Below, piece by piece: positions 13,262 through 44,320 of a stretch of DNA of 64,000 nucleotides (position 1 is the first letter of the stretch; each line of letters starts with the position of its first letter). Where the stretch lies: positions 1 to 64,000 of the IMG/VR virus record IMGVR_UViG_3300018420_000012; one strand, given 5' to 3'. The notes under the pieces were generated by a model. That model had not been told where the DNA came from and did no database searches. It was given only the letters and a program-made list of their open reading frames with translations. Both the position numbers and the translations under genes were made by a program. This stretch comes from a virus.

Positions 13262-13726
13262 ATGACAGCTTTATCAGACTATCTAGAATCTGGTCTATTG
13301 CACCATGTATTCAGAGGCCAAGAATTCCCAAAATTTGGCGGTGTAGCTATCGCCCTCTGTAGTGGAGTCCCCGTTGACAGCGATGACGGAACGACTATTC
13401 CAGAATTACCAACAGGAATTGCTGGTGATGATACTGGCTACAGAAGATACAATCTTGGCAGCCCAACTGATAGTGGGAACTATTTTTGGGAATATAATAT
13501 AAATGACCACAATGCTGGAAGTGGCCTAATTAAAAATGATGTAACTTTACTATTTGATACAGCACTCCTAGACTGGGGTTGGGTATCGGGTATAGCAATT
13601 GTCGATTCCGGCGACTATGGAACCGGCAACCTCCTAATGTATTCAGAACTAAGCAATCCAAGAGTAATTTATCAGGGGGATTCAGTTAAATTTGACTCCT
13701 CTACCCTGCAAATCAAATTCAAGTAA
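13262..13726 (+). CDS. virion-associated fibre-domain protein, 154 aa
   Basis: The protein matches a widespread small phage family: the N-terminus ALSDYLESGLLHHVFRG, then a beta domain ending with LLDWGWVSGIAIVDSGDYG and strands such as NLLMYSELSN and GDSVKF. Members usually lie among tail fibre or head-adjacent genes and probably form a beta-sandwich platform to which longer fibres attach. AAGGGG serves as ribosome binding site; the flanking bases ATTTTC and GAAAAT could pair and place it in a loop. It is the first gene after the capsid terminator. Confidence 0.65.
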   Translation: MTALSDYLESGLLHHVFRGQEFPKFGGVAIALCSGVPVDSDDGTTIPELPTGIAGDDTGYRRYNLGSPTDSGNYFWEYNINDHNAGSGLIKNDVTLLFDTALLDWGWVSGIAIVDSGDYGTGNLLMYSELSNPRVIYQGDSVKFDSSTLQIKFK

Positions 13727-13735
13727 GGTTAAATT

Positions 13736-15352
13736 ATGATTTTGACCAAATCAGAATATCTGAGTAAGATAGATATCTTACTAGCAGATAACTCTACGCA
13801 AGAGATTTCACCTTTAGATATTAGAACAAGTTTAGTAGACTTGGTTGATTCAATAGGTAATCTCGTAGAGGGTGCAGAGTTAATTGCGACAAACTTCTCT
13901 AGTCCAGACACCAGAACTACTAGGGGTGGTGATTGGTCCCTCAATAGCATGTTTTTGGCGGGAAGGTCTAGCGTAGATAACTCTGCTTTTGGTTACGCAT
14001 CACTTAGAAATAATTACAACGGAATAGAAAATACCGCTGTTGGCTCTTATTCTTTAGCTTGTAATTTATATGGTAGTCATAACTCTGCCCTTGGTTATCT
14101 ATCTCTTTCTCACAACACGAATGGTAGCGGTAATGTTGGCGTTGGCCCATTCTCACTAAGCAATAATAAACGTGGCAATTTTAATATTGGTATAGGTCAC
14201 GGTGCTGGTTACTATATAGACCAAGACGATGATTTTAAATTTTATCTTGGTTCTTTCCCAATTACTTCTGGTGACACTTGTGTTGGTGACACGCCAGTAA
14301 CCAGCGGTGCCGCACCGCTTCTCTTTGGCGACCTAAAAGTTGAATCCCATAGACTAGGGATTGGCGTTAATGAATTACACAATTATGGCATGTTGCAAGT
14401 TTCTGGCGACGTATCCCCTGTTACTAGTGGCTCTTTTAACCTTGGAAATAGCTCACGACCTTGGTCGTCTATCAATAATGAAATCCAGTTTTCTGGTAGT
14501 TTTATTGGTTTTGGCGGCCCTCCATCTGGCGATGTGCATGGTATACCAGACGCGAATACTACTATGCATGGCGACCTGCTTCCGGGGGAAGACGGCAGGT
14601 GGGCTTTAGGTAATCCGGGAACTGGTGGAAATAATAGACTGCTTTGGGATGGTTACTTTAACGATGTTTTAATTAGCGGTCAGGCATTTATTAATGAAGC
14701 ACAATATAATACAATAGAAGAGTGCCTGTATGAATGTAAGACGTTACACTTAGCTACTAGCGGCTTCTGCGACCCAGAAAGCAATGGTTTTGACGATTCT
14801 GCCGTTTGCGGAATCTTGAACGATGAAGGGCTAGACGGTGCTGGTTTTGAAATTCACTCCAGTGGTGCTGGTAATTCCTACAGAAGAGATTATAGATTTA
14901 TTTATAGACCACCAGATGTTGATCTAAATTGTCTACCGGTAGATAATGCTTTCACTAGATCAAGATTTGAATCCAACATTTCTCTAGAAGTTGTTGACGG
15001 TGCAGCATTAATCAGCGAAAGATTGCTTGGTAGATATGACACCAGCTTGGCTATTCAAAGTGGCTGCATGGGTATCTTCTTAGAACCATACGCCGTTTCT
15101 GGGCAAAGGGTGGTTGTAGCTCAAGAGCCGCATTACACCAATCAGTACCCAACCCTGAATGATGTAAACTTTATCTCACGTTCTGGTACAGACATTATTG
15201 ATGGTAATCCTAGCGGTTACAATTATACCGCCATGTACGGAACTGTAGACTCTGGCGTTCAAGTCTCACAAAGATTTGCGAGTAGAATTAAAAGCTCAAG
15301 CACTGTTCGTGGATTCAGTATTGTTTACCATGACGAACTAGATCAGGAATAA
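13736..15352 (+). CDS. fibre protein with YadA-like head repeats, 538 aa
   Basis: The N-terminal ~40 residues (LLADNSTQEISPLDIRTSLV) form a likely anchor shared with the gene at 38788. Residues about 79-165 carry repeats of the YadA-head type, such as NSAFGYASLRNN, NTAVGSYSLACN, NSALGYLSLSHN and NVGVGPFSLSNN, which build trimeric left-handed beta-rolls in adhesins. The rest is glycine/serine-rich beta structure with a cysteine-containing segment near 330-365. A trimeric fibre for host binding or head decoration is inferred; exact location on the virion is unknown. Confidence 0.7.
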   Translation: MILTKSEYLSKIDILLADNSTQEISPLDIRTSLVDLVDSIGNLVEGAELIATNFSSPDTRTTRGGDWSLNSMFLAGRSSVDNSAFGYASLRNNYNGIENTAVGSYSLACNLYGSHNSALGYLSLSHNTNGSGNVGVGPFSLSNNKRGNFNIGIGHGAGYYIDQDDDFKFYLGSFPITSGDTCVGDTPVTSGAAPLLFGDLKVESHRLGIGVNELHNYGMLQVSGDVSPVTSGSFNLGNSSRPWSSINNEIQFSGSFIGFGGPPSGDVHGIPDANTTMHGDLLPGEDGRWALGNPGTGGNNRLLWDGYFNDVLISGQAFINEAQYNTIEECLYECKTLHLATSGFCDPESNGFDDSAVCGILNDEGLDGAGFEIHSSGAGNSYRRDYRFIYRPPDVDLNCLPVDNAFTRSRFESNISLEVVDGAALISERLLGRYDTSLAIQSGCMGIFLEPYAVSGQRVVVAQEPHYTNQYPTLNDVNFISRSGTDIIDGNPSGYNYTAMYGTVDSGVQVSQRFASRIKSSSTVRGFSIVYHDELDQE

Positions 15353-15355: not shown

Positions 15356-18034
15356 ATGAAAGATAGACTATCAATACATATAGATAACGGTCAAGCCGAC
15401 GTAAGAGAAGCAGTGACCGTATTAAGGAATGGTGGTACTGGTTCGCAGTCTGGATTGGTTGGTATCACTAATGCGGTTTATGATCCTGACACTGGCTCTC
15501 CCGTTATACCGAACACTATATTCAATGTTCAATCAACTGGCGACTCTACCATTAGATTTACTAGTGGTCCATCCAAGGATTATAGAAGCTCATTAGAATT
15601 ACTCGGCGTTAGTAATACGCGATCTTCTGGGTTGCACATTACCTATAATCCTGAGTTTGATGATGCGTACATCGAGGAAGTATCAAATGGCTATGGCTAC
15701 AACGAGCCATGTATCAATCCGGGGGTCAGTGATAAAACAGTGGCCGACTTTTCCCTGATTCGCCCCAGCGGAAACGAAGGGATGGAATTTTCACATATTT
15801 CTCTTTCTGAGCGTGGGTATGTCAGTATTGGATTAACAAGGGCACATGAGCAGAGAAACTTTGAAGCTAACGCACCGCTCACCATCGCATATGACTGTGC
15901 TGGACACCAAGATAGCGGCACCATATCTATTCACGAACAAGCGTCTTCACCAGCAGACCATGCAGATTTTGGTAAATTATATGTTAAACCGTATTCCGTT
16001 GGCGGCAGAACTCAAGCGATTTATTTTAAAGACGACGGTGGAAACGAAACGAATCTTGTCTTATCCCAAGACTTAGAACCTACTAACCCTGAAGATGGAT
16101 TAGTTTATGGTGATGCGTTTTGTAATACTTACGGTGGCTTAAATAGTCCTCCAACTAGAGCAGAAATATCTGCCCGAACACAAAATACATTCTATGGTAA
16201 TAACGTTGCTAACGATACGGTATATACAAGCGGCAACTTACTTATGGGGTGCGTAACCGCTAGTGGTCTCACTGAAGTATTCAATAATATTGTGCTTGGC
16301 AATGGGTCTGCACAAGATGACGGCGAACTTAAAAATAATATTCTTATCGGTCACGGGTCAATTCAAGGGCTGTCGAATGGTCTTATAAATTCTATCGTTA
16401 TCGGTCATGATTTACAGATTGATGACTCTGATGCGACCGTTGATGGACTACTTTCTATCGGGGGGTTGCTTGAGGGCAATCTTACTGAGAATAGTAAATA
16501 CCTATCAGTTACAGATGGTTACTTTTCTGTTCTTGAAACTGATGATGTAGAGTTCAAAATATCTCAAGAGTATGATGATGGACTTTCTAGGTTTACTACC
16601 AATATTGACGTTATAGATTACGAAACTTCGTCTAACACAGACTATAATCTCAAGTTTAATTTTAAAGGTAATAATCCATCAAGCTCTACCTTAACCCTAT
16701 TTAGGTTGGAGCCAAACAACACGAAGATGACCAATTCTGTTAGCTTCGGAACTCAGAGTAATCCATATGCAAGACTTGAGGGCGATTTGCTTATTAGAGG
16801 GGCTATTAAATTTGCCGATGGCTCGACTATTAATGGTCTGTCTGATGCCGAGTACACACCCGTTGCTGGTGTTACCGGCGTTCAGGTTGTATTCCAAGAT
16901 AATGTAGATAAAATCAGGCTTAATTATTCTTCACTAGATTTGGCTTCTTCACTTGATACTATAGAGCCCAGCACGGCTTTTGTGGCCCTGCAAGTTGGTG
17001 GAACTTCTTCAAGTAGTATTGGTAAAATTTCTCTTGAGGGTCTTGCTGAGTATGTTGGCGGTGGCGGTGGAGATGGAGGTGGAGACACAATCGCTGTAGA
17101 AAACTGCAATATACTGGCTACAAATTCTGAAAACAGAAACAGTGTTTCCACAGCATTAAATACCGGTTCTGTGATGATGGGTTGTGATGTCGCAGAAAAT
17201 GCCCAAGGCTGGGTAAACTCAGTTATGATTGGTACTGAGGCTGGTGCCGATGCCACTACACCAAACGCTAATCTAGATATTGAAAGTGCGGCAGTATTTA
17301 TCGGTACTCGTGCTGGTAAAGATTGCGATAATGTTTATAGAACAATTTGTATTGGTAACAATGCTGGTCAAACAGCCAGCGGCTCTACTGACTCTGTATT
17401 TATTGGGGCCAGTGCTGGGTTTGGCTCTAACTATGATGAATCTTTGGGGCTTGGTGAATGGGCACTTGCTAGTCCACTTGGCGAAGTTAATGCTGGGTCA
17501 GGAAACTTAGAAATTGTAACTGGTTTACTGAATAACCAACGACTGTTCCACCCAACTGTTCTTGATGAGAATGGCGATCCAAGACAGTTAAATTATAGGA
17601 TGAATATCCAGAATACTATCGCTGGACGCACAGATAAAAGAAATATTTCTGTCGGAGACGCTAGACTGTCACCAACAGCACCGCTAGAAGTTAGAAGATC
17701 GAGTACGCTTCATGGCGACAATCCGAACAACTATGTTCAGGCTTGGTACTGCGATGATGTTCTTGTTGCCAGCTTGGATTGCGACGGTAATTTTGTGGCT
17801 GGCGACGAAGCCCAAAACGTTGAAGGCTTTGTTGTTGGTTCTGACTTGACCGGTAGTGCAACAATGAGCCTTCCAACTTCAGGAAAGTTGAACATTTATG
17901 AAGACGGTGTTTCTACGGGGCGAGAAATTTATATTAAAAACAGAGACCCTAACTTAACCATTAACGGAGGAACTTATGTGGTCGCCACTAAGATAGGTAG
18001 TGATTATAGACCGATTTGGGTAAGCTGCTCTTAA
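15356..18034 (+). CDS. large fibre protein with two beta-roll repeat blocks, 892 aa
   Basis: The start ATG follows the previous stop by three bases, with AGGA upstream. Repeats of the form IVLGNGS, ILIGHGS and IVIGHDL near residues 300-350, and VMIGTEAGADA, VFIGTRAGKDC, ICIGNNAGQTA and VFIGASAGFGS near 620-690, are YadA-like trimeric beta-rolls. A glycine linker (GGGGGDGGGD) separates the blocks at about 565-575. The C-terminal ~90 residues (MSLPTSGKLNIYEDGVSTG) look like a beta-sandwich tip domain. It belongs to the host-recognition apparatus by inference. Confidence 0.7.
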   Translation: MKDRLSIHIDNGQADVREAVTVLRNGGTGSQSGLVGITNAVYDPDTGSPVIPNTIFNVQSTGDSTIRFTSGPSKDYRSSLELLGVSNTRSSGLHITYNPEFDDAYIEEVSNGYGYNEPCINPGVSDKTVADFSLIRPSGNEGMEFSHISLSERGYVSIGLTRAHEQRNFEANAPLTIAYDCAGHQDSGTISIHEQASSPADHADFGKLYVKPYSVGGRTQAIYFKDDGGNETNLVLSQDLEPTNPEDGLVYGDAFCNTYGGLNSPPTRAEISARTQNTFYGNNVANDTVYTSGNLLMGCVTASGLTEVFNNIVLGNGSAQDDGELKNNILIGHGSIQGLSNGLINSIVIGHDLQIDDSDATVDGLLSIGGLLEGNLTENSKYLSVTDGYFSVLETDDVEFKISQEYDDGLSRFTTNIDVIDYETSSNTDYNLKFNFKGNNPSSSTLTLFRLEPNNTKMTNSVSFGTQSNPYARLEGDLLIRGAIKFADGSTINGLSDAEYTPVAGVTGVQVVFQDNVDKIRLNYSSLDLASSLDTIEPSTAFVALQVGGTSSSSIGKISLEGLAEYVGGGGGDGGGDTIAVENCNILATNSENRNSVSTALNTGSVMMGCDVAENAQGWVNSVMIGTEAGADATTPNANLDIESAAVFIGTRAGKDCDNVYRTICIGNNAGQTASGSTDSVFIGASAGFGSNYDESLGLGEWALASPLGEVNAGSGNLEIVTGLLNNQRLFHPTVLDENGDPRQLNYRMNIQNTIAGRTDKRNISVGDARLSPTAPLEVRRSSTLHGDNPNNYVQAWYCDDVLVASLDCDGNFVAGDEAQNVEGFVVGSDLTGSATMSLPTSGKLNIYEDGVSTGREIYIKNRDPNLTINGGTYVVATKIGSDYRPIWVSCS

Positions 18035-18054: not shown

Positions 18055-20298
18055 ATGGGAAGACCTGAAGACTGCAACTGCTGCGAAGATTTTGGCAATC
18101 CGCCACTGCCACCAATTACTGATTGTGATGGTGCGATCTGCATTGCATTTATAGACGAGAACAACGACAGTAACGGTAGAGACACCGTTGATGCTAAGTT
18201 TGCTGAATGGGTAAAGGCTTTTCCCAATAGAATTCTTTTTGTGGTAGATGTATTTGTTAGTAATCCATTGAATCCAAACGGGACGCCAAAGTTATATTTT
18301 CCAGATGGCTGGGACGATCACAATAATGCTTTTAATCTTCGCGGTGAATTTATTCGTGGCCTTTCCGTTCCAGAATTTTGCAATAGAGACAATGGAGACG
18401 TTGGTCTTGCAACAGATATTTGGGCTGCACTTACTACAATTGCTGCTGATAGGGGTATCTCAGCCGAACTTGCTTCCGCAACAGATGTTTCTATCTTTGT
18501 TGACACAACAAATAGTATGCCAGATGGTACAGTTCTAGCTGCTTATAACTTACTTGTTAGCGAAGCTGAATCTGCCGGTAAGACAATAACAACTAGCACT
18601 TTCAATTCTGATGAAGATTATATCTGCCCATTTGTAAATTCTACCTGTTGTAATAATGAATTCGTAAAACCCTTACAAGATTTATGCAATGTCACCCCTA
18701 CGTGTGAACCGGCGTATCTTAAATTAACAAATAGATCATTACCTATTGGCTCAACAAATTTTCTTATTAGGGAATATATCGACTATGATCCCGACAATCC
18801 ACCAAGTGAGGAATGGTACTCAATTTATGGCGGCGTTGAAAGGGTGTATGCTCTTGAATACGCCGGTGCTGGAACAGCTTATGAAGCAAACACGACAGAC
18901 CAACGTGCGTTAGTAGCGGAAACAAACGATCAACAACTAGTAATGCTTGCCGAAGTTACTAATTCTGAAGGTACAAGTTTAGACTTTGTAGACATTAACT
19001 ATACTATAGAGTATAGCGATGACAACGGCGTGACTTGGACAGAAATAGAGAACTTGGGCAATAGGACATCTGGGCAAACCTTAACGAAAAAATTTCTTGT
19101 TGATGATTATGGTGGTAGTTCTGCATCCGCCGAAACAGTCCACACCTTGCTTGGTGATACTGTTAATAACTACACAACTACCACATGGGAAGCAAGATTT
19201 AACGCTAGAAGAATATATGATCGAGATTTTAGAATTGTAGCTTCTGCCCCAGATTATCCAGCACTAGGTTCTGTCGCGTTTGGTTTTAAATTAGAGGAAT
19301 ACAGGGTGGCTGGCAGAACTGGTGCTACTGTGCCAGACCCAGAGGTAATAACGAATTTTCTCATTGATTACCATCAACTTAATGCAATATTCCTTAATAC
19401 TTCTCTATTTCGCTGCTTCAAAGAATTAAACTTTGTAAATGGACTTCCCGTCCCCACTTTCGGGTTGCTCAATAATTATAATTATGGTAAACTTCCAGAA
19501 AATGTATATTACGGTGTTGACTACAGGGTTGGAGGACAATATATCCAAGAAGACTTCAATTTAAGTTATGAATATCGCGACAAAATTGACTTGGCGGAAA
19601 GTAGTAGTACCGGCTCTTGCTGGAGTACAGAAACAATTTATACCAACTGGATTAAATCTTTTTCGAGTCTGGGTACGGGAACATCCAATGCTAACGGTGT
19701 CGGAAGCAAAAACAACAAATACACTGTTTCATCATCTTTTGCAGAGGGCATGTCTATTAGTATGTATGATGCTTTTAGTCGGCTGCAAGTCGATGACGGT
19801 TATCCGCTTTTTGATACTGGCATTTCTTCCCTGAGAACTTGGTACAACAGTGACCTTAGTGATCCAAAGAATATTCGCGGGGAATATCAGATTAACGATT
19901 CAGTTTTCTCAACAGGTCAGCGAGAGGAACTTCTGGAGATTGCGTGCTATTATCGCAGTGATCGCGGTATCAGATACGTTAAGACTGAACCAGTTTTTAG
20001 ACTTGAAGACTTCAAGAGACTTTATTTTAAAGACGGTATATGGAATGACTGTGCACGTTGCTGGTTATATTATGACGATCAGTTAGTCCTTGATTACACA
20101 GCAGAAGGACGCTCTTTTTTACGATATTTTGGTATAGAGGTTTTACGATCAAATAGAGAATACAGATTTGTAGCGACGATTAATAATACAGACACTAAAA
20201 TTTATTCACCAGTATTTCGACCGCTGTTCCTCTGTTATGATCGGCGGTTTGGGTCTTACGCTAATCAATATATTCCGTGTGACGATATATGTTCATAA
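18055..20298 (+). CDS. cysteine-rich virion protein with possible VWA/MIDAS domain, 747 aa
   Basis: The N-terminus is cysteine-rich (CNCCEDF). Residues about 25-200 read as a von Willebrand A-like alpha/beta domain: a first core strand ILFVVDVFV, then DVSIFVDTTNSM giving a D150-x-T152-x-S154 metal-ion-dependent adhesion motif, followed by a helix and a cysteine-containing strand. The next part is beta-sandwich-like (NYTIEYSDDNGVTWTEIENL), and the C-terminal third is rich in tyrosine and aromatic residues. VWA domains bind protein ligands through a metal ion, so an adhesin role is plausible. The next gene overlaps its stop by ten bases. Confidence 0.55.
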   Translation: MGRPEDCNCCEDFGNPPLPPITDCDGAICIAFIDENNDSNGRDTVDAKFAEWVKAFPNRILFVVDVFVSNPLNPNGTPKLYFPDGWDDHNNAFNLRGEFIRGLSVPEFCNRDNGDVGLATDIWAALTTIAADRGISAELASATDVSIFVDTTNSMPDGTVLAAYNLLVSEAESAGKTITTSTFNSDEDYICPFVNSTCCNNEFVKPLQDLCNVTPTCEPAYLKLTNRSLPIGSTNFLIREYIDYDPDNPPSEEWYSIYGGVERVYALEYAGAGTAYEANTTDQRALVAETNDQQLVMLAEVTNSEGTSLDFVDINYTIEYSDDNGVTWTEIENLGNRTSGQTLTKKFLVDDYGGSSASAETVHTLLGDTVNNYTTTTWEARFNARRIYDRDFRIVASAPDYPALGSVAFGFKLEEYRVAGRTGATVPDPEVITNFLIDYHQLNAIFLNTSLFRCFKELNFVNGLPVPTFGLLNNYNYGKLPENVYYGVDYRVGGQYIQEDFNLSYEYRDKIDLAESSSTGSCWSTETIYTNWIKSFSSLGTGTSNANGVGSKNNKYTVSSSFAEGMSISMYDAFSRLQVDDGYPLFDTGISSLRTWYNSDLSDPKNIRGEYQINDSVFSTGQREELLEIACYYRSDRGIRYVKTEPVFRLEDFKRLYFKDGIWNDCARCWLYYDDQLVLDYTAEGRSFLRYFGIEVLRSNREYRFVATINNTDTKIYSPVFRPLFLCYDRRFGSYANQYIPCDDICS

Positions 20299-22565
20299 TA
20301 TCAGATAGAGTACGAGAAACATCATCCACTACTGGCACCGGTTCAGTTGTGTTGAATGGTGCGTATGGTGCTTTCCAAACATTCAATACTGGTATTGGAA
20401 ACGGAAATACGACTTACTATACCATTGAGAGCACTACTCAGTGGGAAGTTGGTCAGGGCGTTTACGACTCATCAACTAATTCTCTGTCGCGAGATATAGT
20501 TTTTGACAGTTCTACTGGTGGAGGAAAGATCGACCTTGATGGCGTGTCGATTGTATTCTGTACCCTTCCAGCGGGTAGAACATTTGTTGAAGACCCAGAT
20601 GGTAATGTTTTTGTTTCTGGTGTTCACGCAACGAGTGGCATATTCGAGTCGCTACAAACTCAAGATTTGACGCTAACTAATGATCTTGTTGTTAGCGGAG
20701 ATACTTATCTAAATACTCTGAGTGCTACTGGTGATTCGTTAGTTTCCAATATTGCTTCTACTGGCGAAGTTACCTCTAGCGGATTTCTAACACTAATTAG
20801 GCCAAATTCTGCTGGCAACTTTTTCCACGCATACAAAGACGACTCTATCAATCAAACAGTTTCTTTGCATGTAAACTCTAACACCTCTCCGCTTTGGAGA
20901 CTTGGATTAAAAACAAATCCAGACAGTCAAACTGATCCACCTACATTTGCTTATGTGTATGGTAGTGATGGGTCGGTTGGTCTATTAAGTAATGTCGATA
21001 ATTATATTGCTTTGGCAGATAGTCTTGGCTTTTTTGTTACCCACGACAACAACATTATATTTAGAGCCAGTTCTCAAACCGGTGTCTATATTGATGCTAA
21101 TAATTCTGCTTACCCAGCTTTTACAATTAGTGGCCCAATTCTAGGCGTAGAAGATTTACAAAGATGGGAAGACTCTGCTGGTAATATTTTATCGGTAGTA
21201 GATAGCGGTGGAAGGTTTGGTATCCTAACAGAATCGCCAGACTACGAACTGGACGTTAATGGTAGTGGTAGATTTGAGACCGCTTTCTATACTAGCGGTA
21301 TTTATTTTCAAGACGGTAGTTTTCAAAATACTGCGGTTCTTGGTAGCGTGGAGCAGATTGAGGCTGTATCTGGAATTGCCGTTTATGCATCTGGACTAGC
21401 AGATCAGAACGCACTAGATATATTGACTGTTTCTGGATTACTTGGAGGCTCCTTTGAGAATGACTTAACTGTTTCTCTTGGTGGTGGCAAAACTTTCGGT
21501 CGTTACGAAAATGGCGATGTAATACCCGCATCTGGATTAACTCCAATTGATGTGATAACTCTCGCGGTAACTGAACCAATAGCACCAACGGTTAGCCTTA
21601 CCTCATCATCTCAGGTTGATTTTAATCAAACCAGCGTGAGCGTAACCTTGAATTTCAGTCATACAATCAACTCACTAGGTGCTTCTGTATCTTCAGCGTC
21701 ACTAGAGTTTAGACGTGGGAATACTGGGTCTTGGACGGTTTTATCAACATCTACTTCTACTCCAGACTCTTATGTTCATAGCTTTACCGATACATCATTT
21801 AATACAGACGTTCTCAATTATAGATATGTTGTAACTGATAGTGTTGGTGCTACAGCTACGGCAACAAAAGATATTCAGCCAGACACTTATTCTGCTCCAA
21901 CAATTTCGTTCACAGTTGTCGCCAACTCGACTACTTCGCCTGAGACAAACTCATCTAGAGAGCGTGGCAACGTTGACTCGCAGATTAGCGGCTCTGTAAC
22001 AAGAAACGAAACCTACGTTGACCTAATTAGTTATACATTACAATACAGTGTGGACGGTGGTGCTTGGACAGATATTGGCTCTGCCGTTTCTATAGGTCCG
22101 GGTAGTGACACAATAGCTTCCACAAATCATAATCCAACGTCAGATAATACTGCGTCAAATATTAGATATAGAGTTAAGGTCATTGATGATTACACCACTA
22201 CATACTCATCTACATCTACTGTAAACTTTGGGTTCCTAATATTCTACGGTCCAGATAGTGCTGCACCAGTAACGTCTGCCGCCGTAAGAGCTTTGCCAGA
22301 TAGGTTGTTTACAGATGGCAACGACACATTCAATCTTAACACTGGGAACACCCTTATTAATTTCACGGTTGCTATTCCTAGTACAGAGACTATCTCAGAA
22401 GTTCTTGATTTGGATGCACTCAACGCTAACATCACGTCAGAATATATCAACAACCCATTCAATGTAGATGACGCTGGTGGAACATCGGTATCTTATAATG
22501 TTTATACGATGACCATCTCTATTCCTTATTCAACAAATCACAGACATCAGGTTACAAAGGGATAA
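20289..22565 (+). CDS. tail or head fibre protein, 758 aa
   Basis: The N-terminal ~95 residues, starting ISDRVRETSSTTGTGSVVLN and including LSRDIVFDSS, form a beta anchor domain that recurs at the start of the 1503-residue fibre at 39809. The centre holds stretches like QTQDLTLTNDLVVSGDTYL and FETAFYTSGIYFQDGSFQN, a coiled fibre repeat style. Residues about 430-680 contain Ig-like beta-sandwich modules (SLEFRRGNTGSWTVLSTST; LQYSVDGGAWTDIG). The segment AVSGIAVYASG is shared with the next gene. It lacks a strong ribosome site and is probably coupled to its overlapping predecessor. Confidence 0.65.
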   Translation: MFIISDRVRETSSTTGTGSVVLNGAYGAFQTFNTGIGNGNTTYYTIESTTQWEVGQGVYDSSTNSLSRDIVFDSSTGGGKIDLDGVSIVFCTLPAGRTFVEDPDGNVFVSGVHATSGIFESLQTQDLTLTNDLVVSGDTYLNTLSATGDSLVSNIASTGEVTSSGFLTLIRPNSAGNFFHAYKDDSINQTVSLHVNSNTSPLWRLGLKTNPDSQTDPPTFAYVYGSDGSVGLLSNVDNYIALADSLGFFVTHDNNIIFRASSQTGVYIDANNSAYPAFTISGPILGVEDLQRWEDSAGNILSVVDSGGRFGILTESPDYELDVNGSGRFETAFYTSGIYFQDGSFQNTAVLGSVEQIEAVSGIAVYASGLADQNALDILTVSGLLGGSFENDLTVSLGGGKTFGRYENGDVIPASGLTPIDVITLAVTEPIAPTVSLTSSSQVDFNQTSVSVTLNFSHTINSLGASVSSASLEFRRGNTGSWTVLSTSTSTPDSYVHSFTDTSFNTDVLNYRYVVTDSVGATATATKDIQPDTYSAPTISFTVVANSTTSPETNSSRERGNVDSQISGSVTRNETYVDLISYTLQYSVDGGAWTDIGSAVSIGPGSDTIASTNHNPTSDNTASNIRYRVKVIDDYTTTYSSTSTVNFGFLIFYGPDSAAPVTSAAVRALPDRLFTDGNDTFNLNTGNTLINFTVAIPSTETISEVLDLDALNANITSEYINNPFNVDDAGGTSVSYNVYTMTISIPYSTNHRHQVTKG

Positions 22566-26465: not shown

Positions 26466-26476
26466 TAGGTATCTTG

Positions 26477-28336: not shown

Positions 28337-28863
28337 TGGCTTGGAACACTCACCCTCATCCACCACCAACTTATTATACTAACTCAGTAATGCCATCGGC
28401 TGAAATTAGACAATTAGGATTTCCATTATATCAAACCTCTGACATTGTAACGCCCGCTTCTGGACGGCCCGACATTGACGGAATATGGTATATGGATGAT
28501 TGCACCGGTTCTGGGCCGATTTATGATATTTGGATAAGTGGCTCAATGAATTCGTCTGGTATATTTCTCATAAGGCCCGGCGATAGCATTATAGCTGGTG
28601 AGGATACTGACTCCATCGAGGGAGGTGCAGTTAGTTGGTACAGATATGACGTTACACAGATATTGCAGTCTGGGTCTATTACCGATACTCAATCTAGCGG
28701 ACAATTTCGTGTAAAATATATTACTGACACATTAAGTGTTGGAGATCAAGACCCATGTTCACTATATCATACATATGTTGAAGATGGTTACGGGTATGCA
28801 CCAAGCGTACAGATAACACAAATTTATAGACAGATGAATACTAGTTTTTTATTAGGAGAATAA
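28336..28863 (+). CDS. virion structural protein, unknown, 175 aa
   Basis: The ATG overlaps the stop of the fibre gene upstream. The protein starts with a proline/histidine-rich segment (THPHPPPTYYTNSV) and then looks beta-rich and aromatic (GIWYMDDCTGSGPIYDIWIS; AVSWYRYDVTQILQ). No family is recognised. Its place inside the fibre block and its coupling to neighbours suggest a structural part, perhaps a fibre connector or chaperone. Confidence 0.5.
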   Translation: MAWNTHPHPPPTYYTNSVMPSAEIRQLGFPLYQTSDIVTPASGRPDIDGIWYMDDCTGSGPIYDIWISGSMNSSGIFLIRPGDSIIAGEDTDSIEGGAVSWYRYDVTQILQSGSITDTQSSGQFRVKYITDTLSVGDQDPCSLYHTYVEDGYGYAPSVQITQIYRQMNTSFLLGE

Positions 28864-31805: not shown

Positions 31806-31814
31806 GAGTAAAAT

Positions 31815-32109: not shown

Positions 32110-32128
32110 CTTCAAACGGAGATTTCAA

Positions 32129-34891: not shown

Positions 34892-34913
34892 TTTAGATTG
34901 CTTGTTATTTTTA

Positions 34914-34942: not shown

Positions 34943-34978
34943 ATAAACTACTATCAATAATATTTTAGGATCAGTTAT

Positions 34979-36631: not shown

Positions 36632-37359
36632 TGTTTCACCACAGTTGGCCTCAAAATCAAGACTTATGGGCCTTATATCATAAGGTTACATTTGATGGGG
36701 TCAATAGGCAAATTATTATTAATCCTAATGAATTAGATGTTGAGGTAAAAATAGATTTATATTCAGACTGGAAGGAGTGGGCACTACAAAGAGATCATTT
36801 GAAATTTTTACCAGCTATGCGTTCGGTGGGTGGTGACGCTACGGTTGGTGGAAACTTTCTTGGATCGACATTTTTTACCATTAATAACTGGAATATTTTA
36901 GTATCAGACAGCACTGTTTTTACAGGTAACTTATTTTCTGATAACTTTGATAGCCCATTTGTTACTACGGTTGGAGCTAGAGTGGCGAGACAGCAATTTT
37001 CAAACCTTGTTGACTCAGTTTCGATTGACACCGGAGATTTGATTACAGCCGGTATAGCGACAACTACTAACATAAACAACCAGACTACTACATTACAGAC
37101 AGATATTTCAAACCAAACTACGACAATACAGAATGATTTAGCGTCTATTTCTGGTGCCTTACCAGCAGACGTTATAACGCAACTTAACTCAACAAATTAT
37201 GATGGAGTACCATTTGGAGACATAATGAACATAATTCTCTCAATGGCACAGGGGAGAATAGTAGAAAATGGGACGGGCGTATTTGAATTTTACGCACAAG
37301 ACAATAGTACAATACTTTATACATTAACTAAATCTGGCAACGAGAGAAATAGATCATGA
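36631..37359 (+). CDS. conserved phage structural protein, 242 aa
   Basis: The first ~100 residues match a family found in many phages: VTFDGVNRQIIINPNELDVE, then YSDWKEWALQRDHLKFLPAM and GGDATVGGNFLGSTFF. The C-terminal half is a coiled coil with asparagine/threonine heptads (NNQTTTLQTDISNQTTTIQN) and a short tail domain, suggesting a trimeric stalk. It is coupled to both neighbours by overlaps (TAATG, ATGA). The role is probably an attachment or neck-whisker-like part; this is inference. Confidence 0.6.
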   Translation: MFHHSWPQNQDLWALYHKVTFDGVNRQIIINPNELDVEVKIDLYSDWKEWALQRDHLKFLPAMRSVGGDATVGGNFLGSTFFTINNWNILVSDSTVFTGNLFSDNFDSPFVTTVGARVARQQFSNLVDSVSIDTGDLITAGIATTTNINNQTTTLQTDISNQTTTIQNDLASISGALPADVITQLNSTNYDGVPFGDIMNIILSMAQGRIVENGTGVFEFYAQDNSTILYTLTKSGNERNRS

Positions 37360-37646
37360 CTACCGAGCTAACATCTGTATCGACTTTTGGTTGGTTTACA
37401 GATGAAAGCACTTATGAGTTAGATTTATTAACATCTGTATCGACTCACGGTTGGTACGGTGTTACGTTAAAGGATTTAATAGAAAGATACCCAACCCTTG
37501 ATTTTGGCCTTATTATTGACCGACTTCATGAGGTTGGGGTTGAAATAGAAGCGATACACGAAATAGAAAACTTAGAAATAAAGACACTTGAAGAGCTGGG
37601 GAATTTTGAAATAACTCAATTATACAATATAAACTTGAAAAGATAG
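37356..37646 (+). CDS. small structural-region protein with tandem repeat, 96 aa
   Basis: The N-terminal 40 residues repeat a 20-residue unit (LTSVSTFGWFTDEST then LTSVSTHGWYGVTLK). The DNA repeat TAACATCTGTATCGACT occurs at 37369 and 37429, exactly 60 bases apart. The C-terminal part is acidic and helical (RLHEVGVEIEAIHEIENLEI). Start overlaps the previous stop (ATGA). No family is recognised. Confidence 0.5.
   Translation: MTTELTSVSTFGWFTDESTYELDLLTSVSTHGWYGVTLKDLIERYPTLDFGLIIDRLHEVGVEIEAIHEIENLEIKTLEELGNFEITQLYNINLKR
37369..37445 (+). repeat. 60-bp-period tandem repeat inside a small gene
   Basis: Seventeen identical bases (TAACATCTGTATCGACT) at 37369-37385 and 37429-37445, in frame, followed in both by a GGTTGGT segment. 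This is a recent partial duplication of a 20-codon unit. Confidence 0.75.
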
Positions 37647-37649: not shown

Positions 37650-37925
37650 ATGCTTTACGCTGGGTCATCTTGGTCAGAATTGCCGATCTCTACATCTCCA
37701 CAACAGGAGTCTAGCGGTGAAGAATTTGGCTACGAGTTTACTATTGATGAGTTTTTTGAGATAACTGGTGATATAGACGGAACAAAAAGTTTTAGTCTCT
37801 ATATCTGCGAAAACCCTTCTTTTAGTGTAACTATAGTTAGAGAAGTAAGTAATTTGTTAGAATTAGAACAACAGCAAGAATTTACTTTGCGTATAGACGA
37901 CGACAATACTTGGAATTTATCCTAA
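37650..37925 (+). CDS. small hypothetical structural-region protein, 91 aa
   Basis: An acidic protein with beta-strand and Ig-like feel (FGYEFTIDEFFEITGDIDGT; SVTIVREVSNLLEL). It sits in a run of short genes with little spacing. No family recognised; likely a small virion part or an assembly factor. Confidence 0.45.
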   Translation: MLYAGSSWSELPISTSPQQESSGEEFGYEFTIDEFFEITGDIDGTKSFSLYICENPSFSVTIVREVSNLLELEQQQEFTLRIDDDNTWNLS

Positions 37926-37934: not shown

Positions 37935-38240
37935 ATGGCTAGTGAAATTCATGAAGGAGATATTGGCACAAAGCTGCTCATCACGGTGACTGATGACGGT
38001 AGCATTGTAGACATATCTTCTGCATCTAGCTTGTCTATTTACATTAAAAAACCAGACGGTACGATATTGACTAGAACTGGCGTTCTAGAGACAGATGGCA
38101 CAGATGGAAAAATGTACTATATTACAGTCGCTGGGGATTTAGACAGGGCAGGCAATTACAAAATTCAAGGTAAGGTAGTTCTTCCTTCTGGAAGTTATTA
38201 TACCAGTACCGCTACTTTCAAAGTTCATTGTAACTTATAG
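37935..38240 (+). CDS. BppU N-terminal-like baseplate/fibre domain protein, 101 aa
   Basis: The sequence follows the pattern of the N-terminal domain of phage baseplate upper proteins: GDIGTKLLITVTDDGSIVDI, SLSIYIKKPDGTILTRTG, then GDLDRAGNYKIQGKVVLPSG. In BppU-like proteins this beta-sandwich anchors receptor-binding fibres; here it stands alone as a single-domain protein. AAGGTG lies before the ATG. It may serve as an adaptor between virion and one of the fibres. Confidence 0.65.
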   Translation: MASEIHEGDIGTKLLITVTDDGSIVDISSASSLSIYIKKPDGTILTRTGVLETDGTDGKMYYITVAGDLDRAGNYKIQGKVVLPSGSYYTSTATFKVHCNL

Positions 38241-38250: not shown

Positions 38251-38772
38251 ATGTCGTGGCAAGGTCAAATGGGAACTATTGTTAGATACCTAATCAGCGA
38301 TGTAGACCCTGACAATTATACTTTTTCGGACCATAGAATAGAGACAACCATACTCGTAGCAGCTCAATTATCTCAAATGAGTATTGAGTATAGCCAGTCT
38401 TATAATGTGAATGTTGAGAATTGCACACTAGACCCTGACCCAACAAATTCAGATAATGAAGATTACTCTTTCATAACTTTGGTTTGTTTGCGTGCAGCGT
38501 GTATAATAATAGGAAGTCAGATAAGAAGTGAGTCTGGAAACGCCATTTCTATCAAAGATGGTCCATCAGCGATAGATTTGCGTGGGGTTACTCAAACACT
38601 CACCGTTCTTTATAAAGATTTGTGTGAAAAGTATGAAAAAGCAGAACTTGATTATAGAGCTGGAAGCAGCATAGCTGGTCAAGCAATCCTTGGTCCTTAT
38701 AGCCCCGGCTCAGATTATGTGTCGAGGAACAGTCACGGCGGTCACAGAGCCGGTGGATATTTCGATTATTAA
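38251..38772 (+). CDS. possible head-tail connector (adaptor-like) protein, 173 aa
   Basis: The pattern MSWQGQMGTIVRYLISDVDP, then DHRIETTILVAAQLSQMSIE, LDPDPTNSDNEDYSFITLVC and ILGPYSPGS matches a conserved structural protein family in aquatic phages. Its helical layout resembles phage head-completion or adaptor proteins of the gp6/gp15 kind, placed around the portal exit. The C-terminus is a Gly/His/Arg-rich tail. An internal GTGTATAAT (38499-38507) lies about 280 bases upstream of the next gene. The connector role is moderately supported at best. Confidence 0.45.
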   Translation: MSWQGQMGTIVRYLISDVDPDNYTFSDHRIETTILVAAQLSQMSIEYSQSYNVNVENCTLDPDPTNSDNEDYSFITLVCLRAACIIIGSQIRSESGNAISIKDGPSAIDLRGVTQTLTVLYKDLCEKYEKAELDYRAGSSIAGQAILGPYSPGSDYVSRNSHGGHRAGGYFDY

Positions 38773-38787: not shown

Positions 38788-39792
38788 ATGCCTAATCAAT
38801 TAAATTCAGGCGAAATCATTACGAGTATTCAGGCTGACTTAGCAGACAATAATGCTGGTCTTATTTCCGCATATGACATTCGTCATAACATGGAAGACAT
38901 TGCATTTTCCATAAATAAAATTGTAGCGAGTGGAGACACTGAGACTGAGTTTCCATTCTTTAATATAGTAAAGGTTAGCAATGTTGATGCTGTCAGTTCT
39001 TCAAGCACAACCGCCACAAATGGCGACTTGGTTCTTGAGTCTGGACTTTTCTTCCCAAACGCACCGGTTAATTCCACCAAGCGGCAGGATCGCCCTTGGC
39101 TTGGCGAAGAGAATATCGACCACAATATCTTAGACAATTTAGATGCTGGTGATGTTCACACCCAATATTATCACAGGGCGGGCAAAGATGCCCCTAGAGC
39201 TGGGTCTAACGCACTGACTGGCAACATGGAAACAGCAGATGTTTGGATTAACACATCTGGTATCGACGATGTTGGCTTTAAATTTGTTCAAACTAACCCA
39301 TCAGCTACAGAGCAAGAAATTTATGTTTCTGGAACGATGAGATGGGCAAATACTGATAATTCTATTTTAGAAAATGCGAAGGGCGTTGCTAAGGCTTGGG
39401 CTTTCTTTAGTGCTAGTGGTAATGGCAATGTCCCAGAAATCTACGGTTGGCACAATATTGACAGTATTGCTAGAAAGGGCGAAGCTGGCAAACTAAAAAT
39501 CACCTTTAGTTCTGGTACTTTTGAAAATAATTTCTTTGTAGCGATGGGCACTTCCAACGGAACAACCTCTAGTGGTAATTTGCTGGATATGGATGTAAAT
39601 TCTGTAGCCTGCATTGCACGATCTGGAGATGACGGGAACATGCTTAGATCGGTCACTTATGTAATTCAGGATGAGGCTGGTCAATATGTTGACGGTAAAA
39701 TTTGCACGTTTGTCGCATACGGCTATAGCCCCGGAGAATCTTCTGGTACTGTTCCTACTATGATTGATGAATCATCAGCACCGACGTTTTAA
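38788..39792 (+). CDS. fibre-like structural protein with shared anchor, 334 aa
   Basis: The N-terminus (ADLADNNAGLISAYDIRHNM) parallels that of the fibre at 13736 (LLADNSTQEISPLDIRTSLV), implying the same attachment partner. The middle holds a typical fibre phrase (HNILDNLDAGDVHTQYYHRA) and NALTGNMETADVWINTSG, and the C-terminal ~150 residues form a beta-rich domain, with SFAYG-style aromatic strands near the end (GKICTFVAYGYSPG). AGGAG lies before the ATG. Likely a short fibre or the collar of the large fibre encoded next. Confidence 0.6.
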   Translation: MPNQLNSGEIITSIQADLADNNAGLISAYDIRHNMEDIAFSINKIVASGDTETEFPFFNIVKVSNVDAVSSSSTTATNGDLVLESGLFFPNAPVNSTKRQDRPWLGEENIDHNILDNLDAGDVHTQYYHRAGKDAPRAGSNALTGNMETADVWINTSGIDDVGFKFVQTNPSATEQEIYVSGTMRWANTDNSILENAKGVAKAWAFFSASGNGNVPEIYGWHNIDSIARKGEAGKLKITFSSGTFENNFFVAMGTSNGTTSSGNLLDMDVNSVACIARSGDDGNMLRSVTYVIQDEAGQYVDGKICTFVAYGYSPGESSGTVPTMIDESSAPTF

Positions 39793-39808: not shown

Positions 39809-42800
39809 ATGTTAAACTTCTTCTTGGCAGATAGAGTAAAAGAAATATCTTATACTGTTGGTACTGGCCCGCTTCAGCTTGAAGGTGCGGCTGCTGGCTT
39901 CAGTGGATTTGATGATATTTTTGCGTCTGGCGATTTAGTATTCTACGCTGTTACTGATAATGATAAGTATGAAATTGGCTCTGGTATTTATGAAAAAAGC
40001 GGCTCGTCAAGAGTTCTTACTCGAAATGTTATTAGAAGTTCTAATTTAAATATTGGTCCATACTATGTGGACGGTACAAGTAATCGCGGCCCTACTGATG
40101 GTCAGAATGGATATTTTCATCCGTTATGGCTGTCGAGGTCCGCAGCGGTCAGCGGTGTTGGCCTTACTGATGGGCCATTTAGTGATGTCAGCGGAATCTC
40201 GTTCGATGAATTTCCGGGGCAAACTTTTTATTATGTTCCTGAGTATTTCGGTGCTGCCGAACCTTCTCACTCTGGATTAAGCGGTGTTGATTTTAATGCG
40301 TCTGGGAATCCAGTTAGCTTTGTCAACGATGGAGTAAAAGAGGTATTTGTAACATATCCGGGCAAGACGGCTGTATACAACGCTTACGGTATAGACCCAA
40401 GTGTTAAAGAACCACAGAGAAGTGGTATTGCGTTCTGGGAAAATGGACAAATTATTAATTATGCATCTGGCATGTCTTGGGACAATGTAGCAGATGCACT
40501 TGGCTTCCGCAAGCATAACCCTACTTATGCCATTGATGTTGGTGGGAATATCGACTACTCAGTAGTTAGAGCTTCCGGTTTTGTTGATGGTGGTTCAGGT
40601 ATTTTATTCTCTGGTGTTGCTGGTTCATTCTCTGGTGGTCGTCAGCTAGAGCCATTTCTTAGAAATGTATTAAATAATGAGACTGGTACGGACGCTGTGT
40701 TTGAACTGAGCGGCGTGGTAGACCAAGGGATCATGTTCCAAAAGCAGCTTCCTAGAACTTTCTTTATTGGTCCATCTGGCGAGTGTGGATGCGTTGATGA
40801 CTACCCCGTGTTCAGAGAATTGGTAGCAAGTGACTTAGACCCTATCGTTGCTGATTTACCATTTGTTTCTCAGAACAATGTCGGTATTGGTTCAAATTCA
40901 GAATATCCTTTTGTTGTTGGTCAGATCGCAGTATATAGAGCTAGTGGCGAAATAACTTATGATAGTGGTCTATATTATGACGCTAATAATAATCGTCTCG
41001 GTATTAATGGCGTGACCGATGGATATTTGGTTCCAGAGTATGTACTGCACGTTAGCGGTGATATGGCTGCACAGTCTGGATATTTTGACCAAGTATTATT
41101 TACTGACGACATTATCAGAATTGGCGAAAATGCCGGTACTTATCTTGATAATCTATTCGTTGTAAATATTGGCTATAATGCCGGTGCTAATGCTAGTGGC
41201 GTAGAAGATGGTGTTATTGTCGGTAGTGGTGCCGGTAACAACCTAAAAGATTCTGACAAAGTTATTGTAATTGGTAGAAACGCTGGTCAACTCACTAGAT
41301 ATACAGATTCCATCATTGGAATTGGCTCTCAATCCGCTGAAAGTGCTAGTGGATTATACAATATTACGGCTATTGGCTCTGGTGCTGCTTGGGGAGCTTC
41401 TCAGGTAGATCAGAGCTTTATCGCTGGTCCTTTCGCTGGTAGTGGATTAGAAGAAGCTGAATCCGTTGTGGCTATGGGCTGGAATGTATTAGCGAACGCT
41501 TCCGGTGTCACAGATGTTGTAGCTGCTGGTAAAAATGCTCTCAGGGGTTCACAAACCGTATCAAACGCCCAAGTTGTTGGTGAGTCAGCTGCGAGCGGCT
41601 CCTTCAATCTTTCGCAAGTTTCTGCTGTTGGCAATCTTGCGGCAAACGAAGCGTCTGGCTTGACAAATGTTGTAGCTGTAGGTCAACATTCTGCTAGATA
41701 CGCTGAGACACTAGACGATGTTGTTGCTATCGGTCGTGCGGCTGCCCAGTCTGGACTAGAGCTTGGTGACACTGTTGCGGTTGGAACATCTGCTGGATCA
41801 CAAGCTAGTGGCAATTTCAATATTTACTTTGGTGCTAATGCCGGTGCTTCACTATCTGGTAATGAGAACATTGAGATTATCGCTTCTGGTTCATCTCTCA
41901 GTTTCTTAACAAATGAAGCTAGTGGCAAACTTAATATCGGCAATACCATTGTTGGTGATATTTATCAGGGTAGAGTAAAGGTTGGTGCTCCAACTGACGC
42001 TTCTCCAGATGCAACCCTTGAGGTTCGCCCAGATAACGCAGAAGAAATCGGACTACTTGTTCGTCATGTTGGCTCTGGTGGGTCGGAACCTTACTTCGCC
42101 CTACAATCCGGTGATGCTACTACATTCTTCCATATTAACAATAGTGGCGATGTCATCACTAGTGGCTGTGTAAATCCTAGTGGCGGTGTTTTGTTTAACG
42201 ATATCGTCCCTCAAGACATTACTAATAAACTTTATAATGACGGCGGTACATTATTCTGGAATGGATCACAGGTAGACACTGCTGGCGGAACCAGTTGGTA
42301 TCTTAGCAACGACCAGCTAGGTGCGTCTGTTGGGCAAAATATTACCACAGATCAAACTGTTACAATTAGTGGTGTTAGTGGTGTTACGATAGACCAGATT
42401 GGTAGATATTTGCAAATCTCAGCCGGTGAATTGTCCGGTGTTCTTCAGCCACAGATAACCAATTCTCTTTATACATTTGATGTTGGTGCTAGTGGTTACG
42501 ACGCAAACAATAATGACCCCGCAACGATCAATCAGGGTGACATAGTTTTACTTTCTGGCGTTAGCGGTGTTCACGTTGATTTTGAAACTAGATACGCTGG
42601 TGGTCAACGGTCTGGTATTTTTGTTATTGGTTATGACCCAACCATTACCTACGCATTTAATGCTGTAGCTAGTGGAAATGGTGGACAAAACAATACGCCA
42701 AAATCAATGGTTAATGATTCCGTTCTTGCTATCTCCGGTGTTAGCGGTATTAATATTGACTTTGAGAACCGCTCAGATGGAACAAATGAGAGCGGCGTTT

Positions 42801-44320
42801 TTGTTCTAGGATTTACCGAAGAATACTGGAGCAAAGCGTCTGGCGAAGGGAACTACAGCCAGATTTTAGAAAATACAGCCAGTGGACTTGCTATTAGCGG
42901 TATCTCTGAGTGGGCATCTGGTGAGTTTGGAAGACTTGGACTTGGTGGCGGCACCAAGGGTACAAGTGGTATTATCTTCCAAGACGACCATTTGATTCTT
43001 GACCCACAAGGTTCTGGTTCACTCGCTAGATTGAATCTTAACGACAATAATAGCGTTATTATTCAAACAGAAGATGGTTATGAATTCTTTGGTGGTAATA
43101 GTAATTCGGTAATTGTTGGAGAGTCGGCGGGTAGTGGCTCTGTTGACTTAGACGGTAGCGTTGTGATCGGGAGTGGTGCTGGTCAAAACTCGTACTGTGG
43201 CCCGGATGTTTACAGTGGGCCGTGGGCGGGTTCTAATAATGTTCTTATAGGTAGTAGAGCTGGAGCTTTTAGCAGCGGTGATGCTGCCAACTACGGAAAC
43301 GTGGTAGCCGTGGGAAATGCGGCTGGTTCTGGCGGTTGGAACGCAACGGACGGCGTGTTTGTTGGAGGACGTGCGGGCAGCAATATCGAATCATCCACCC
43401 AAGCCGTGTGTATTGGTTCGCGAGCTGGTGAAACTTTAATTGAAAGTCCACGCTCAATATCAATTGGTTGGTATGCCGGAAGAAATGCTTCTGGCATTAA
43501 CGACTCTGTTAATATTGGATGGAGAGCCGGAAGCTTTTCAGACAACTGTACGAACGCAATAAATATCGGCGGCTATGCAGGCTATACCGCTGAAAATAAT
43601 TCCCAATCTGTAATCTTAGGCGACGAAGCGGGAAGTTATTCAAACAATAATTACCGATGTGTTATGGTTGGTTGGGATGCTGGTAGAGAGTCTGCTTCTG
43701 GTCAAAACGAAATTTATATAGGTGCAAACGCAGGGTTAAACGCTTCCGGCGACTCGGCTTATAATATTTACATAGGTCAAGACGCTGGACGAGGAAGAGT
43801 CGGCTCAAATTCTATTATGATTCATAAGGGAAATGTTGCAACAGATAATCTCAAGGCCGACCACGATAGAGATGATTTGCTTGTGATTGGAGACAACATT
43901 CTCGGCATCGAAGATTCCTATCTTCATATCGGTTATAGTCTGGTTAATGATAAGGATCAGTCTTTATTTGGAACTTTAAATACTGCCGCACTCAATCTAA
44001 CACCTCACAGCACTACAAAATCCGCACTTTACCTAAGACCACTAAGTAGTCAATCTTCATCATTGATGAAAACAAAAAGCCTGTACGGTGCGACCTACTT
44101 TGATACAAATATTATTAATAAAAATGGACAGCTACTTGTTCAAGTGGCTAATAGCAAATCTGGTAACGAGATTCTTACCACTGGTGGAAGTGTAATACCA
44201 AGAGCTACGGCTGGACAGATAGCACTTTATGAGACAGTTTCAAATACTGGAATTGCAATTCTTGTTCAGGATGGCGGTGCTTTAACTTGGAGATACCTAG
44301 AACTTGGCTTCCTTCCTTAA
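39809..44320 (+). CDS. giant trimeric fibre protein with two YadA-like repeat blocks, 1503 aa
   Basis: The N-terminal ~95 residues (LADRVKEISYTVGTGPLQLE) are the anchor domain also seen at 20289. Two long blocks of about 20-23-residue beta-roll repeats follow, at about 440-690 (FVVNIGYNAGANASGVEDG; VIVGSGAGNNL; VIVIGRNAGQL) and 1090-1345 (VIVGESAGSGS; VVIGSGAGQNS; VLIGSRAGAFS; VCIGSRAGETL; IYIGANAGLNA). They are separated by modules with ISGVSGVTIDQIGRYLQI and repeats of YAFNAV style. The C-terminal ~60 residues end in WRYLELGFLP, a tip. Such repeats build trimeric adhesin shafts; by length this is the longest complete fibre in the window. Confidence 0.75.
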   Translation: MLNFFLADRVKEISYTVGTGPLQLEGAAAGFSGFDDIFASGDLVFYAVTDNDKYEIGSGIYEKSGSSRVLTRNVIRSSNLNIGPYYVDGTSNRGPTDGQNGYFHPLWLSRSAAVSGVGLTDGPFSDVSGISFDEFPGQTFYYVPEYFGAAEPSHSGLSGVDFNASGNPVSFVNDGVKEVFVTYPGKTAVYNAYGIDPSVKEPQRSGIAFWENGQIINYASGMSWDNVADALGFRKHNPTYAIDVGGNIDYSVVRASGFVDGGSGILFSGVAGSFSGGRQLEPFLRNVLNNETGTDAVFELSGVVDQGIMFQKQLPRTFFIGPSGECGCVDDYPVFRELVASDLDPIVADLPFVSQNNVGIGSNSEYPFVVGQIAVYRASGEITYDSGLYYDANNNRLGINGVTDGYLVPEYVLHVSGDMAAQSGYFDQVLFTDDIIRIGENAGTYLDNLFVVNIGYNAGANASGVEDGVIVGSGAGNNLKDSDKVIVIGRNAGQLTRYTDSIIGIGSQSAESASGLYNITAIGSGAAWGASQVDQSFIAGPFAGSGLEEAESVVAMGWNVLANASGVTDVVAAGKNALRGSQTVSNAQVVGESAASGSFNLSQVSAVGNLAANEASGLTNVVAVGQHSARYAETLDDVVAIGRAAAQSGLELGDTVAVGTSAGSQASGNFNIYFGANAGASLSGNENIEIIASGSSLSFLTNEASGKLNIGNTIVGDIYQGRVKVGAPTDASPDATLEVRPDNAEEIGLLVRHVGSGGSEPYFALQSGDATTFFHINNSGDVITSGCVNPSGGVLFNDIVPQDITNKLYNDGGTLFWNGSQVDTAGGTSWYLSNDQLGASVGQNITTDQTVTISGVSGVTIDQIGRYLQISAGELSGVLQPQITNSLYTFDVGASGYDANNNDPATINQGDIVLLSGVSGVHVDFETRYAGGQRSGIFVIGYDPTITYAFNAVASGNGGQNNTPKSMVNDSVLAISGVSGINIDFENRSDGTNESGVFVLGFTEEYWSKASGEGNYSQILENTASGLAISGISEWASGEFGRLGLGGGTKGTSGIIFQDDHLILDPQGSGSLARLNLNDNNSVIIQTEDGYEFFGGNSNSVIVGESAGSGSVDLDGSVVIGSGAGQNSYCGPDVYSGPWAGSNNVLIGSRAGAFSSGDAANYGNVVAVGNAAGSGGWNATDGVFVGGRAGSNIESSTQAVCIGSRAGETLIESPRSISIGWYAGRNASGINDSVNIGWRAGSFSDNCTNAINIGGYAGYTAENNSQSVILGDEAGSYSNNNYRCVMVGWDAGRESASGQNEIYIGANAGLNASGDSAYNIYIGQDAGRGRVGSNSIMIHKGNVATDNLKADHDRDDLLVIGDNILGIEDSYLHIGYSLVNDKDQSLFGTLNTAALNLTPHSTTKSALYLRPLSSQSSSLMKTKSLYGATYFDTNIINKNGQLLVQVANSKSGNEILTTGGSVIPRATAGQIALYETVSNTGIAILVQDGGALTWRYLELGFLP

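What the first reader, a model, noticed from the sequence alone, without database searches (positions are those of the whole stretch)
13262..44320. A 31-kb island of fibre and adhesin genes between capsid and neck genes
Most long-tailed phages keep fibres after the tape measure. Here at least eight fibre-like proteins lie between the major capsid gene and the neck genes, and at least one more giant adhesin follows the tape measure. Their position next to capsid genes raises the possibility that some are head fibres or neck whiskers. The virion may carry many different adhesins at once.
Basis: partly seen in the sequence, partly recalled or inferred. Interest (0 to 1): 0.7.

Follow-up and report, generated by a model that had tools for sequence, protein, structure and literature searches.

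The report
Two fibre-gene cassettes around phage neck
A widespread but uncultured group of aquatic bacterial viruses keeps a large, changeable set of fibre genes beside its capsid and neck genes instead of only at the tail tip, which suggests that the particle carries extra adhesins around its neck or head.

Summary
Between the major capsid gene (12123-13130) and the tape measure (50324) lie 37 kb, of which 31 kb are fibre-type and small structural genes; lambda has 3.4 kb there. Eight or nine ORFs have fibre or virion-family support. This is not a late insertion: in 18 of 18 relatives with both landmarks the spacing is 19-37 kb, and a frame recurs: a Gp80 bead (PF23140, family of podophage GP4 fibre I), a fibre with N-terminal anchor "DNS", usually a fibre with anchor "SDR", variable cargo, a putative head-tail adaptor, a second DNS+SDR fibre pair, a putative stopper. 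The two cassettes share homologous anchors, found nowhere else in the three records checked. N-termini are conserved while C-termini diverge, as in receptor-binding fibres. Gp80 next to an SDR fibre beside the capsid gene also occurs in short-tailed phages (Venkman, ctXG6705). Best reading: an ancestral, expandable set of neck or tail-vertex fibres. Attachment is inferred from gene position and precedent, not shown; a Gp80 homologue after baseplate J in myophage PVJ1 warns against treating Gp80 as head-specific. The giant protein after the tape measure looks like a tail-tip structural protein. New variant of a known kind.

The parts
12123..13130 (+). Major capsid protein; left boundary of the island
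13262..13726 (+). Gp80 family bead/fibre subunit (154 aa)
   Evidence: Pfam PF23140 1.3e-20; PDB 8jou chain a (140-aa 'virion-associated phage protein') profile E 3.3e-7; follows the capsid gene in 73/75 loci
13736..15352 (+). Cassette 1 fibre with N-terminal DNS anchor (aa 1-62) and 17-residue repeat
   Evidence: 55/55 loci; lag-17 repeat z=8.5; phrog_6002 4.5e-14
15356..18034 (+). Fibre continuation; fused to 13736 as one gene in several relatives (e.g. G005, G006, G002, G003)
   Evidence: 40/40 loci; fusions seen
18055..20298 (+). Variable cargo, 747 aa; possible VWA-like motif near aa 150 (by eye)
   Evidence: hits in only 2 of 17 relatives
20289..22565 (+). Cassette 1 fibre with N-terminal SDR anchor (aa 1-105), variable C-terminus
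   Evidence: coverage by fifths 0.83 to 0.06; SDR-type N-terminus also in Venkman, HTVC023P and CRP-6
22569..23960 (+). Fibre-like protein with fibre C-terminal domain
   Evidence: phrog_37034 at C-terminus 7e-4; variable
23970..26465 (+). Structural/fibre-like protein
   Evidence: phrog_697 7.6e-21
26474..28336 (+). Tail-fibre-family protein
   Evidence: phrog_24369 2.4e-10, phrog_9017 2.3e-8
28336..28863 (+). Small variable protein
   Evidence: iterated profile finds it in 7 genomes
28865..29173 (+). Small protein, present in about half of relatives, not fibre-like
   Evidence: 9/17, 10/19
29181..31805 (+). Variable cargo, 874 aa
   Evidence: only in closest relative G009, C-terminus only
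32129..34891 (+). Variable cargo, 920 aa
   Evidence: phrog_1236 'head protein' 7.8e-6; only in G009
34979..36631 (+). Virion structural protein family of cyanophages and HMO-2011
   Evidence: phrog_1645 1.7e-69; tblastn to 175 phage records
36631..37359 (+). Cargo protein, 242 aa
   Evidence: shared only with G009
37356..37646 (+). Small cargo ORF
   Evidence: shared only with G009
37650..37925 (+). Small ORF
   Evidence: 8/19 genomes
37935..38240 (+). BppU_N domain protein, 101 aa
   Evidence: PF10651 3.4e-8; 15/19 genomes
38251..38772 (+). Putative head-tail adaptor (neck)
   Evidence: 18/18 genomes, position and size only; no profile match
38788..39792 (+). Cassette 2 fibre: DNS anchor plus tail-fibre tip domain
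   Evidence: found next to the adaptor in 35 of 37 loci; phrog_11355 in 29/33 members; DNS homology hhalign E 1e-14
39809..44320 (+). Cassette 2 giant fibre (1503 aa): SDR anchor, conserved first third, 17-residue repeat arm
   Evidence: SDR homology 18/18, E 1e-22 to 1e-8; repeat z=14.4; N to C coverage 0.82 to 0.43
44566..45048 (+). Putative stopper (neck); right boundary
   Evidence: 18/18 genomes; no PDB match
50324..56458 (+). Tape measure
   Evidence: size and conserved N-terminus in relatives
56475..64000 (+). Start of 4186-aa protein after the tape measure (continues to 69035 of the record), FG-GAP repeats

Best explanation
The island is an ancestral, expandable locus of virion fibres in an uncultured group of long-tailed phages with records up to 174 kb. 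It consists of two cassettes on either side of the putative head-tail adaptor gene. Each cassette starts with a fibre carrying the same short 'DNS' anchor, and a fibre with the 'SDR' anchor follows (always in cassette 2, in 15 of 18 genomes in cassette 1). Cassette 1 also has a Gp80 bead gene directly after the capsid gene. Shown: the genes, their order, the conservation of the frame, the homology of the anchors and the N-conserved/C-variable pattern. Inferred: the anchors bind at the tail vertex of the capsid or on the neck ring, the repeat arms reach outwards, and the variable C-terminal parts bind host surface sugars or proteins for first, reversible contact, while the conserved tail-tip module after the tape measure does the committed binding and DNA delivery. 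Lineages change receptors by swapping cargo genes and fibre C-termini while keeping the anchors.
For: Spacing 19-37 kb from capsid to tape measure in 18/18 genomes, against 3.4 kb in lambda. Frame genes in 18/18. Anchor homology between cassettes found with profiles that did not include the other family. Anchors found nowhere else in the G000, G001 and G002 records. Fibre-type conservation gradient and 17-residue repeat. Gp80 profile match to PDB 8jou. Gp80 then SDR fibre then repeat adhesins beside the capsid gene in Venkman, and Gp80 then SDR in ctXG6705; SDR fibre between portal and capsid genes in CRP-6. Literature precedent for 15-fold collars and neck fibres.
Against: No virion, proteomic or microscopy data. 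Adaptor and stopper are named by position only. Anchor models are weak (mean pLDDT 62-67) and gave no fold match. Gp80 follows the baseplate J gene in myophage PVJ1, so Gp80 alone does not fix a place. In A-1(L) the distal carbohydrate-binding module of the neck fibre did not bind the host.
Confidence: 0.6

Rival explanations
1. The fibres are ordinary tail-tip or baseplate fibres whose genes merely sit upstream; gene position does not reflect place in the virion.
For: Gp80 lies next to baseplate J in PVJ1; BppU_N is a baseplate-type domain; phage Slash has an annotated tailspike gene upstream of its tape measure.
Against: Position is conserved in 18/18 genomes with two fibre genes between the putative adaptor and stopper; neither anchor is found in genes after the tape measure in the records checked; similar sets sit beside head genes in short-tailed phages and CRP-6.
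Confidence: 0.22
2. They are neck or head fibres but serve assembly, stability or regulation (like T4 whiskers or A-1(L) neck fibres) rather than host adhesion.
For: A-1(L) neck-fibre tip module did not bind its host, and T4 neck fibres were proposed to help or control the tail fibres (both stated in PMC10966104).
Against: Strong C-terminal turnover and cargo exchange with N-termini kept is typical of receptor-binding parts; tail-fibre tip family in 38788.
Confidence: 0.13
3. The variable cargo block (18055 and 29181-37646) is accessory, non-virion or decoration material that rides in a permissive spot, with only the frame being true fibres.
For: These genes are mostly restricted to the closest relative G009.
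Against: 34979 belongs to a virion structural family, 32129 matches a 'head protein' family.
Confidence: 0.05

Closest known systems
Podophage GP4 fibre I (gp80, PF23140; PDB 8jou)
   Same: Homologous bead subunit; fibres at the head-tail junction; 15-fold collar cited in PMC10925440. Further details of the GP4 virion are from memory; its paper is not held.
   Different: Long-tailed phage with tape measure; several further fibre types with DNS and SDR anchors; two cassettes around the adaptor.
Methylophilales phage Venkman / Podoviridae ctXG6705 fibre module
   Same: Gp80 then SDR-anchored fibre downstream of the capsid gene; Venkman also has a repeat adhesin of the 13736 repeat family.
   Different: No long-tail gene set; one cassette only; no DNS-anchored fibre detected.
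Cyanophage A-1(L) neck fibres (gp82-gp81-gp80)
   Same: Long-tailed phage with fibres anchored on a neck ring.
   Different: Genes lie far from the other structural genes; no PDB chain matched the anchor profiles convincingly.
T4 fibritin whiskers and phi29 head fibres
   Same: Fibres at neck or head, encoded near neck or head genes (own knowledge).
   Different: No Pfam match to these families among the island proteins scanned.

Membership tests
Gp80 fibre-subunit family (PF23140) | Score above Pfam cut-off over most of the domain | tested here: met
   13262: 74.5 bits against cut-off 27, positions 1-127 of 128
GP4-type fibre I system | Attachment at the tail vertex through a 15-fold fibre-tail adaptor and rope protein | not testable with these tools
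   No structure of this virion; the GP4 paper is not held
T4 fibritin (whiskers) | Sequence homology to fibritin | tested here: not met
   No fibritin family among Pfam hits for the 20 island proteins scanned
A-1(L) neck fibre | Anchor homologous to gp82N | tested here: inconclusive
   No plausible PDB match for anchor profiles; that the chain is in the copy was not verified; structure comparison used weak models
YadA-type head repeats | Match to solved YadA-type heads or their 14-residue repeat | tested here: not met
   Period here is 17 residues; no PDB match. The 14-residue period of YadA is from memory
Caudoviricetes head-neck-tail module | Capsid, adaptor, stopper, tube, tape measure in order | tested here: inconclusive
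   Terminase, portal and a phage G-like major capsid protein recognised; adaptor and stopper not identified by profile
DGR-diversified fibres | Reverse transcriptase in the genome | tested here: not met
   No RVT_1 in 9 records, controls positive

The most novel reading that the evidence does not exclude
The virion carries two separate rings of fibres, one on each side of the head-tail adaptor, built from the same pair of anchors but with different arms. A long-tailed phage would then combine a collar of many exchangeable adhesins of the short-tailed-phage type with a conserved tail tip.
Probability: 0.35. Interest if true: 0.7.

Novelty: new variant of a known kind. Interest (0 to 1): 0.5.

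Why it matters
If its main variable adhesins sit at the neck or head, host-range prediction from tail-tip genes would miss them, and the two-cassette anchor system gives a simple test of how phages add and swap adhesins without changing the tail.

Tried and rejected
Late insertion of non-virion genes: rejected by synteny in 18 genomes. Diversity-generating retroelement: no reverse transcriptase. S74 chaperone-matured fibres: none found. YadA-type heads: wrong repeat length and no PDB match. Fold search with predicted models of 20289 (N-terminal 363 aa) and 38788: no significant match. Host assignment from MAGs: hits lie in SAR202, Alphaproteobacteria, Chitinophagia and Flavobacteriales bins, so unresolved. 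An outgroup (L159/L160) lacks fibre genes between adaptor and stopper, but both contigs start too close to the adaptor to show the region back to the capsid gene. Literature search for the GP4 structure paper: not held.

Full report
What was checked. The window is bases 1-64000 of a 91,943-base IMG/VR record. ORF lists show a nearly unbroken run of + strand genes from 13262 to 44320. Upstream are terminase (5998), portal (8032), a decoration-type protein of the XM1 gp53 family (11597) and a capsid protein with distant similarity to that of phage G. Downstream follow seven conserved tail and neck genes, a 2044-aa tape measure and a 4186-aa protein. No sheath gene was recognised, so a siphovirus is likely but not proven.

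Fibre evidence inside the island. Pfam and PHROGs support 13262 (Gp80), 13736, 23970, 26474, 32129, 34979 and 38788; 39809 has a weak PHROG match and a strong 17-residue repeat (z=14.4), also present in 13736 (z=8.5). 15356 and 20289 are added by homology and by their conservation pattern. Across 17 relatives, mean coverage by fifths falls from 0.83 to 0.06 in 20289, 1.00 to 0.60 in 13736 and 0.82 to 0.43 in 39809, whereas 13262, 38251, 38788 and most tail genes are covered evenly.

Conservation. After it come 13262 in 73/75 loci long enough, 13736 in 55/55 and 15356 in 40/40. Eighteen records, the window's own included, contain both capsid and tape measure; spacing is 19.4-37.2 kb, the window having the largest, against 3.4 kb in lambda. 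Two records (G001, G014) were read across their ends on the assumption that they are circularly permuted. In all 18 the order is Gp80, DNS fibre, further genes, adaptor, DNS fibre, SDR fibre, stopper. A first SDR fibre is present before the adaptor in 15 of 18 (absent in G002, G018, G021). 38788 lies next to the adaptor in 35/37 loci.

Two related cassettes. A profile from the 13736 N-termini alone finds 33/33 members of the 38788 family (E 6.5e-12 to 0.0023), and hhalign gives E 1e-14 over 52 columns. A profile from 20289-type anchors alone finds 18/18 of the 39809 family (E 1e-22 to 1e-8). Shuffled controls gave at best 0.017. Neither anchor is found outside the island in the G000, G001 or G002 records.

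Relatives elsewhere. Gp80 of the window matches PDB 8jou chain a, which I take from memory to be GP4 fibre I. Venkman has capsid, 'tail tube A', Gp80, SDR protein, fibres and a repeat adhesin in a row; ctXG6705 has capsid, Gp80, SDR fibre. Roseobacter phage CRP-6 has an SDR fibre between portal and capsid genes. PVJ1, a myophage, has a Gp80 homologue after baseplate J, so Gp80 does not by itself mean head or neck. Published precedents for fibres at the head-tail junction are the 15:12 collar in DEV 'like in the podophage GP4' (PMC10925440) and the pentadecamer-anchored neck fibres of A-1(L) (PMC10966104); in the latter the distal carbohydrate-binding module did not bind the host.

Interpretation. 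The simplest account is an ancestral fibre locus whose anchors attach at the tail vertex or neck and whose arms vary between lineages. Attachment and host binding are inferences. Two structure predictions (mean pLDDT 62.5 and 66.9) and their PDB fold searches gave no significant match, so the anchors remain unidentified in structural terms. The giant protein after the tape measure is conserved over its full length (47% to G001) and is more likely a tail-tip component.

Outgroup. Two contigs, L159 and L160, with adaptor proteins at about 42% identity, have only an 82-aa ORF between adaptor and stopper and a UDP-galactopyranose-mutase-like ORF (identified by eye) just before BppU_N and adaptor. 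They suggest that cassette 2 can be absent, but both contigs begin too close to the adaptor to show what lies back to the capsid gene, and they represent one lineage.

Noticed in passing
window 3275-4333: GDP-mannose 4,6-dehydratase gene inside the packaging module, conserved (63-69%) in all five relatives whose region was read; may supply a sugar for modifying virion or DNA.
   Followed up: partly
window 1947-2474: Sigma-70 region 2 protein, a candidate late sigma factor, conserved in relatives.
   Followed up: no
window 5342-6001: ClpP-type protease just before terminase, likely prohead protease.
   Followed up: no
window 48020-49066 and 49433-50284: Two genes before the tape measure are homologous to each other (cross hits).
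   Followed up: no
window 56475 to record 69035: 4186-aa protein with FG-GAP repeats, conserved end to end in G001.
   Followed up: partly
window 18055-20298: Possible von Willebrand A-like motif (FVDTTNSM) seen by eye, no Pfam support.
   Followed up: no
L152: In this relative cassette 1 is reduced to Gp80 plus one fibre, and large genes follow cassette 2 instead.
   Followed up: partly
L199-L202: Capsid relatives lie in MAG bins of four unrelated bacterial groups; host unresolved, probably binning errors.
   Followed up: no
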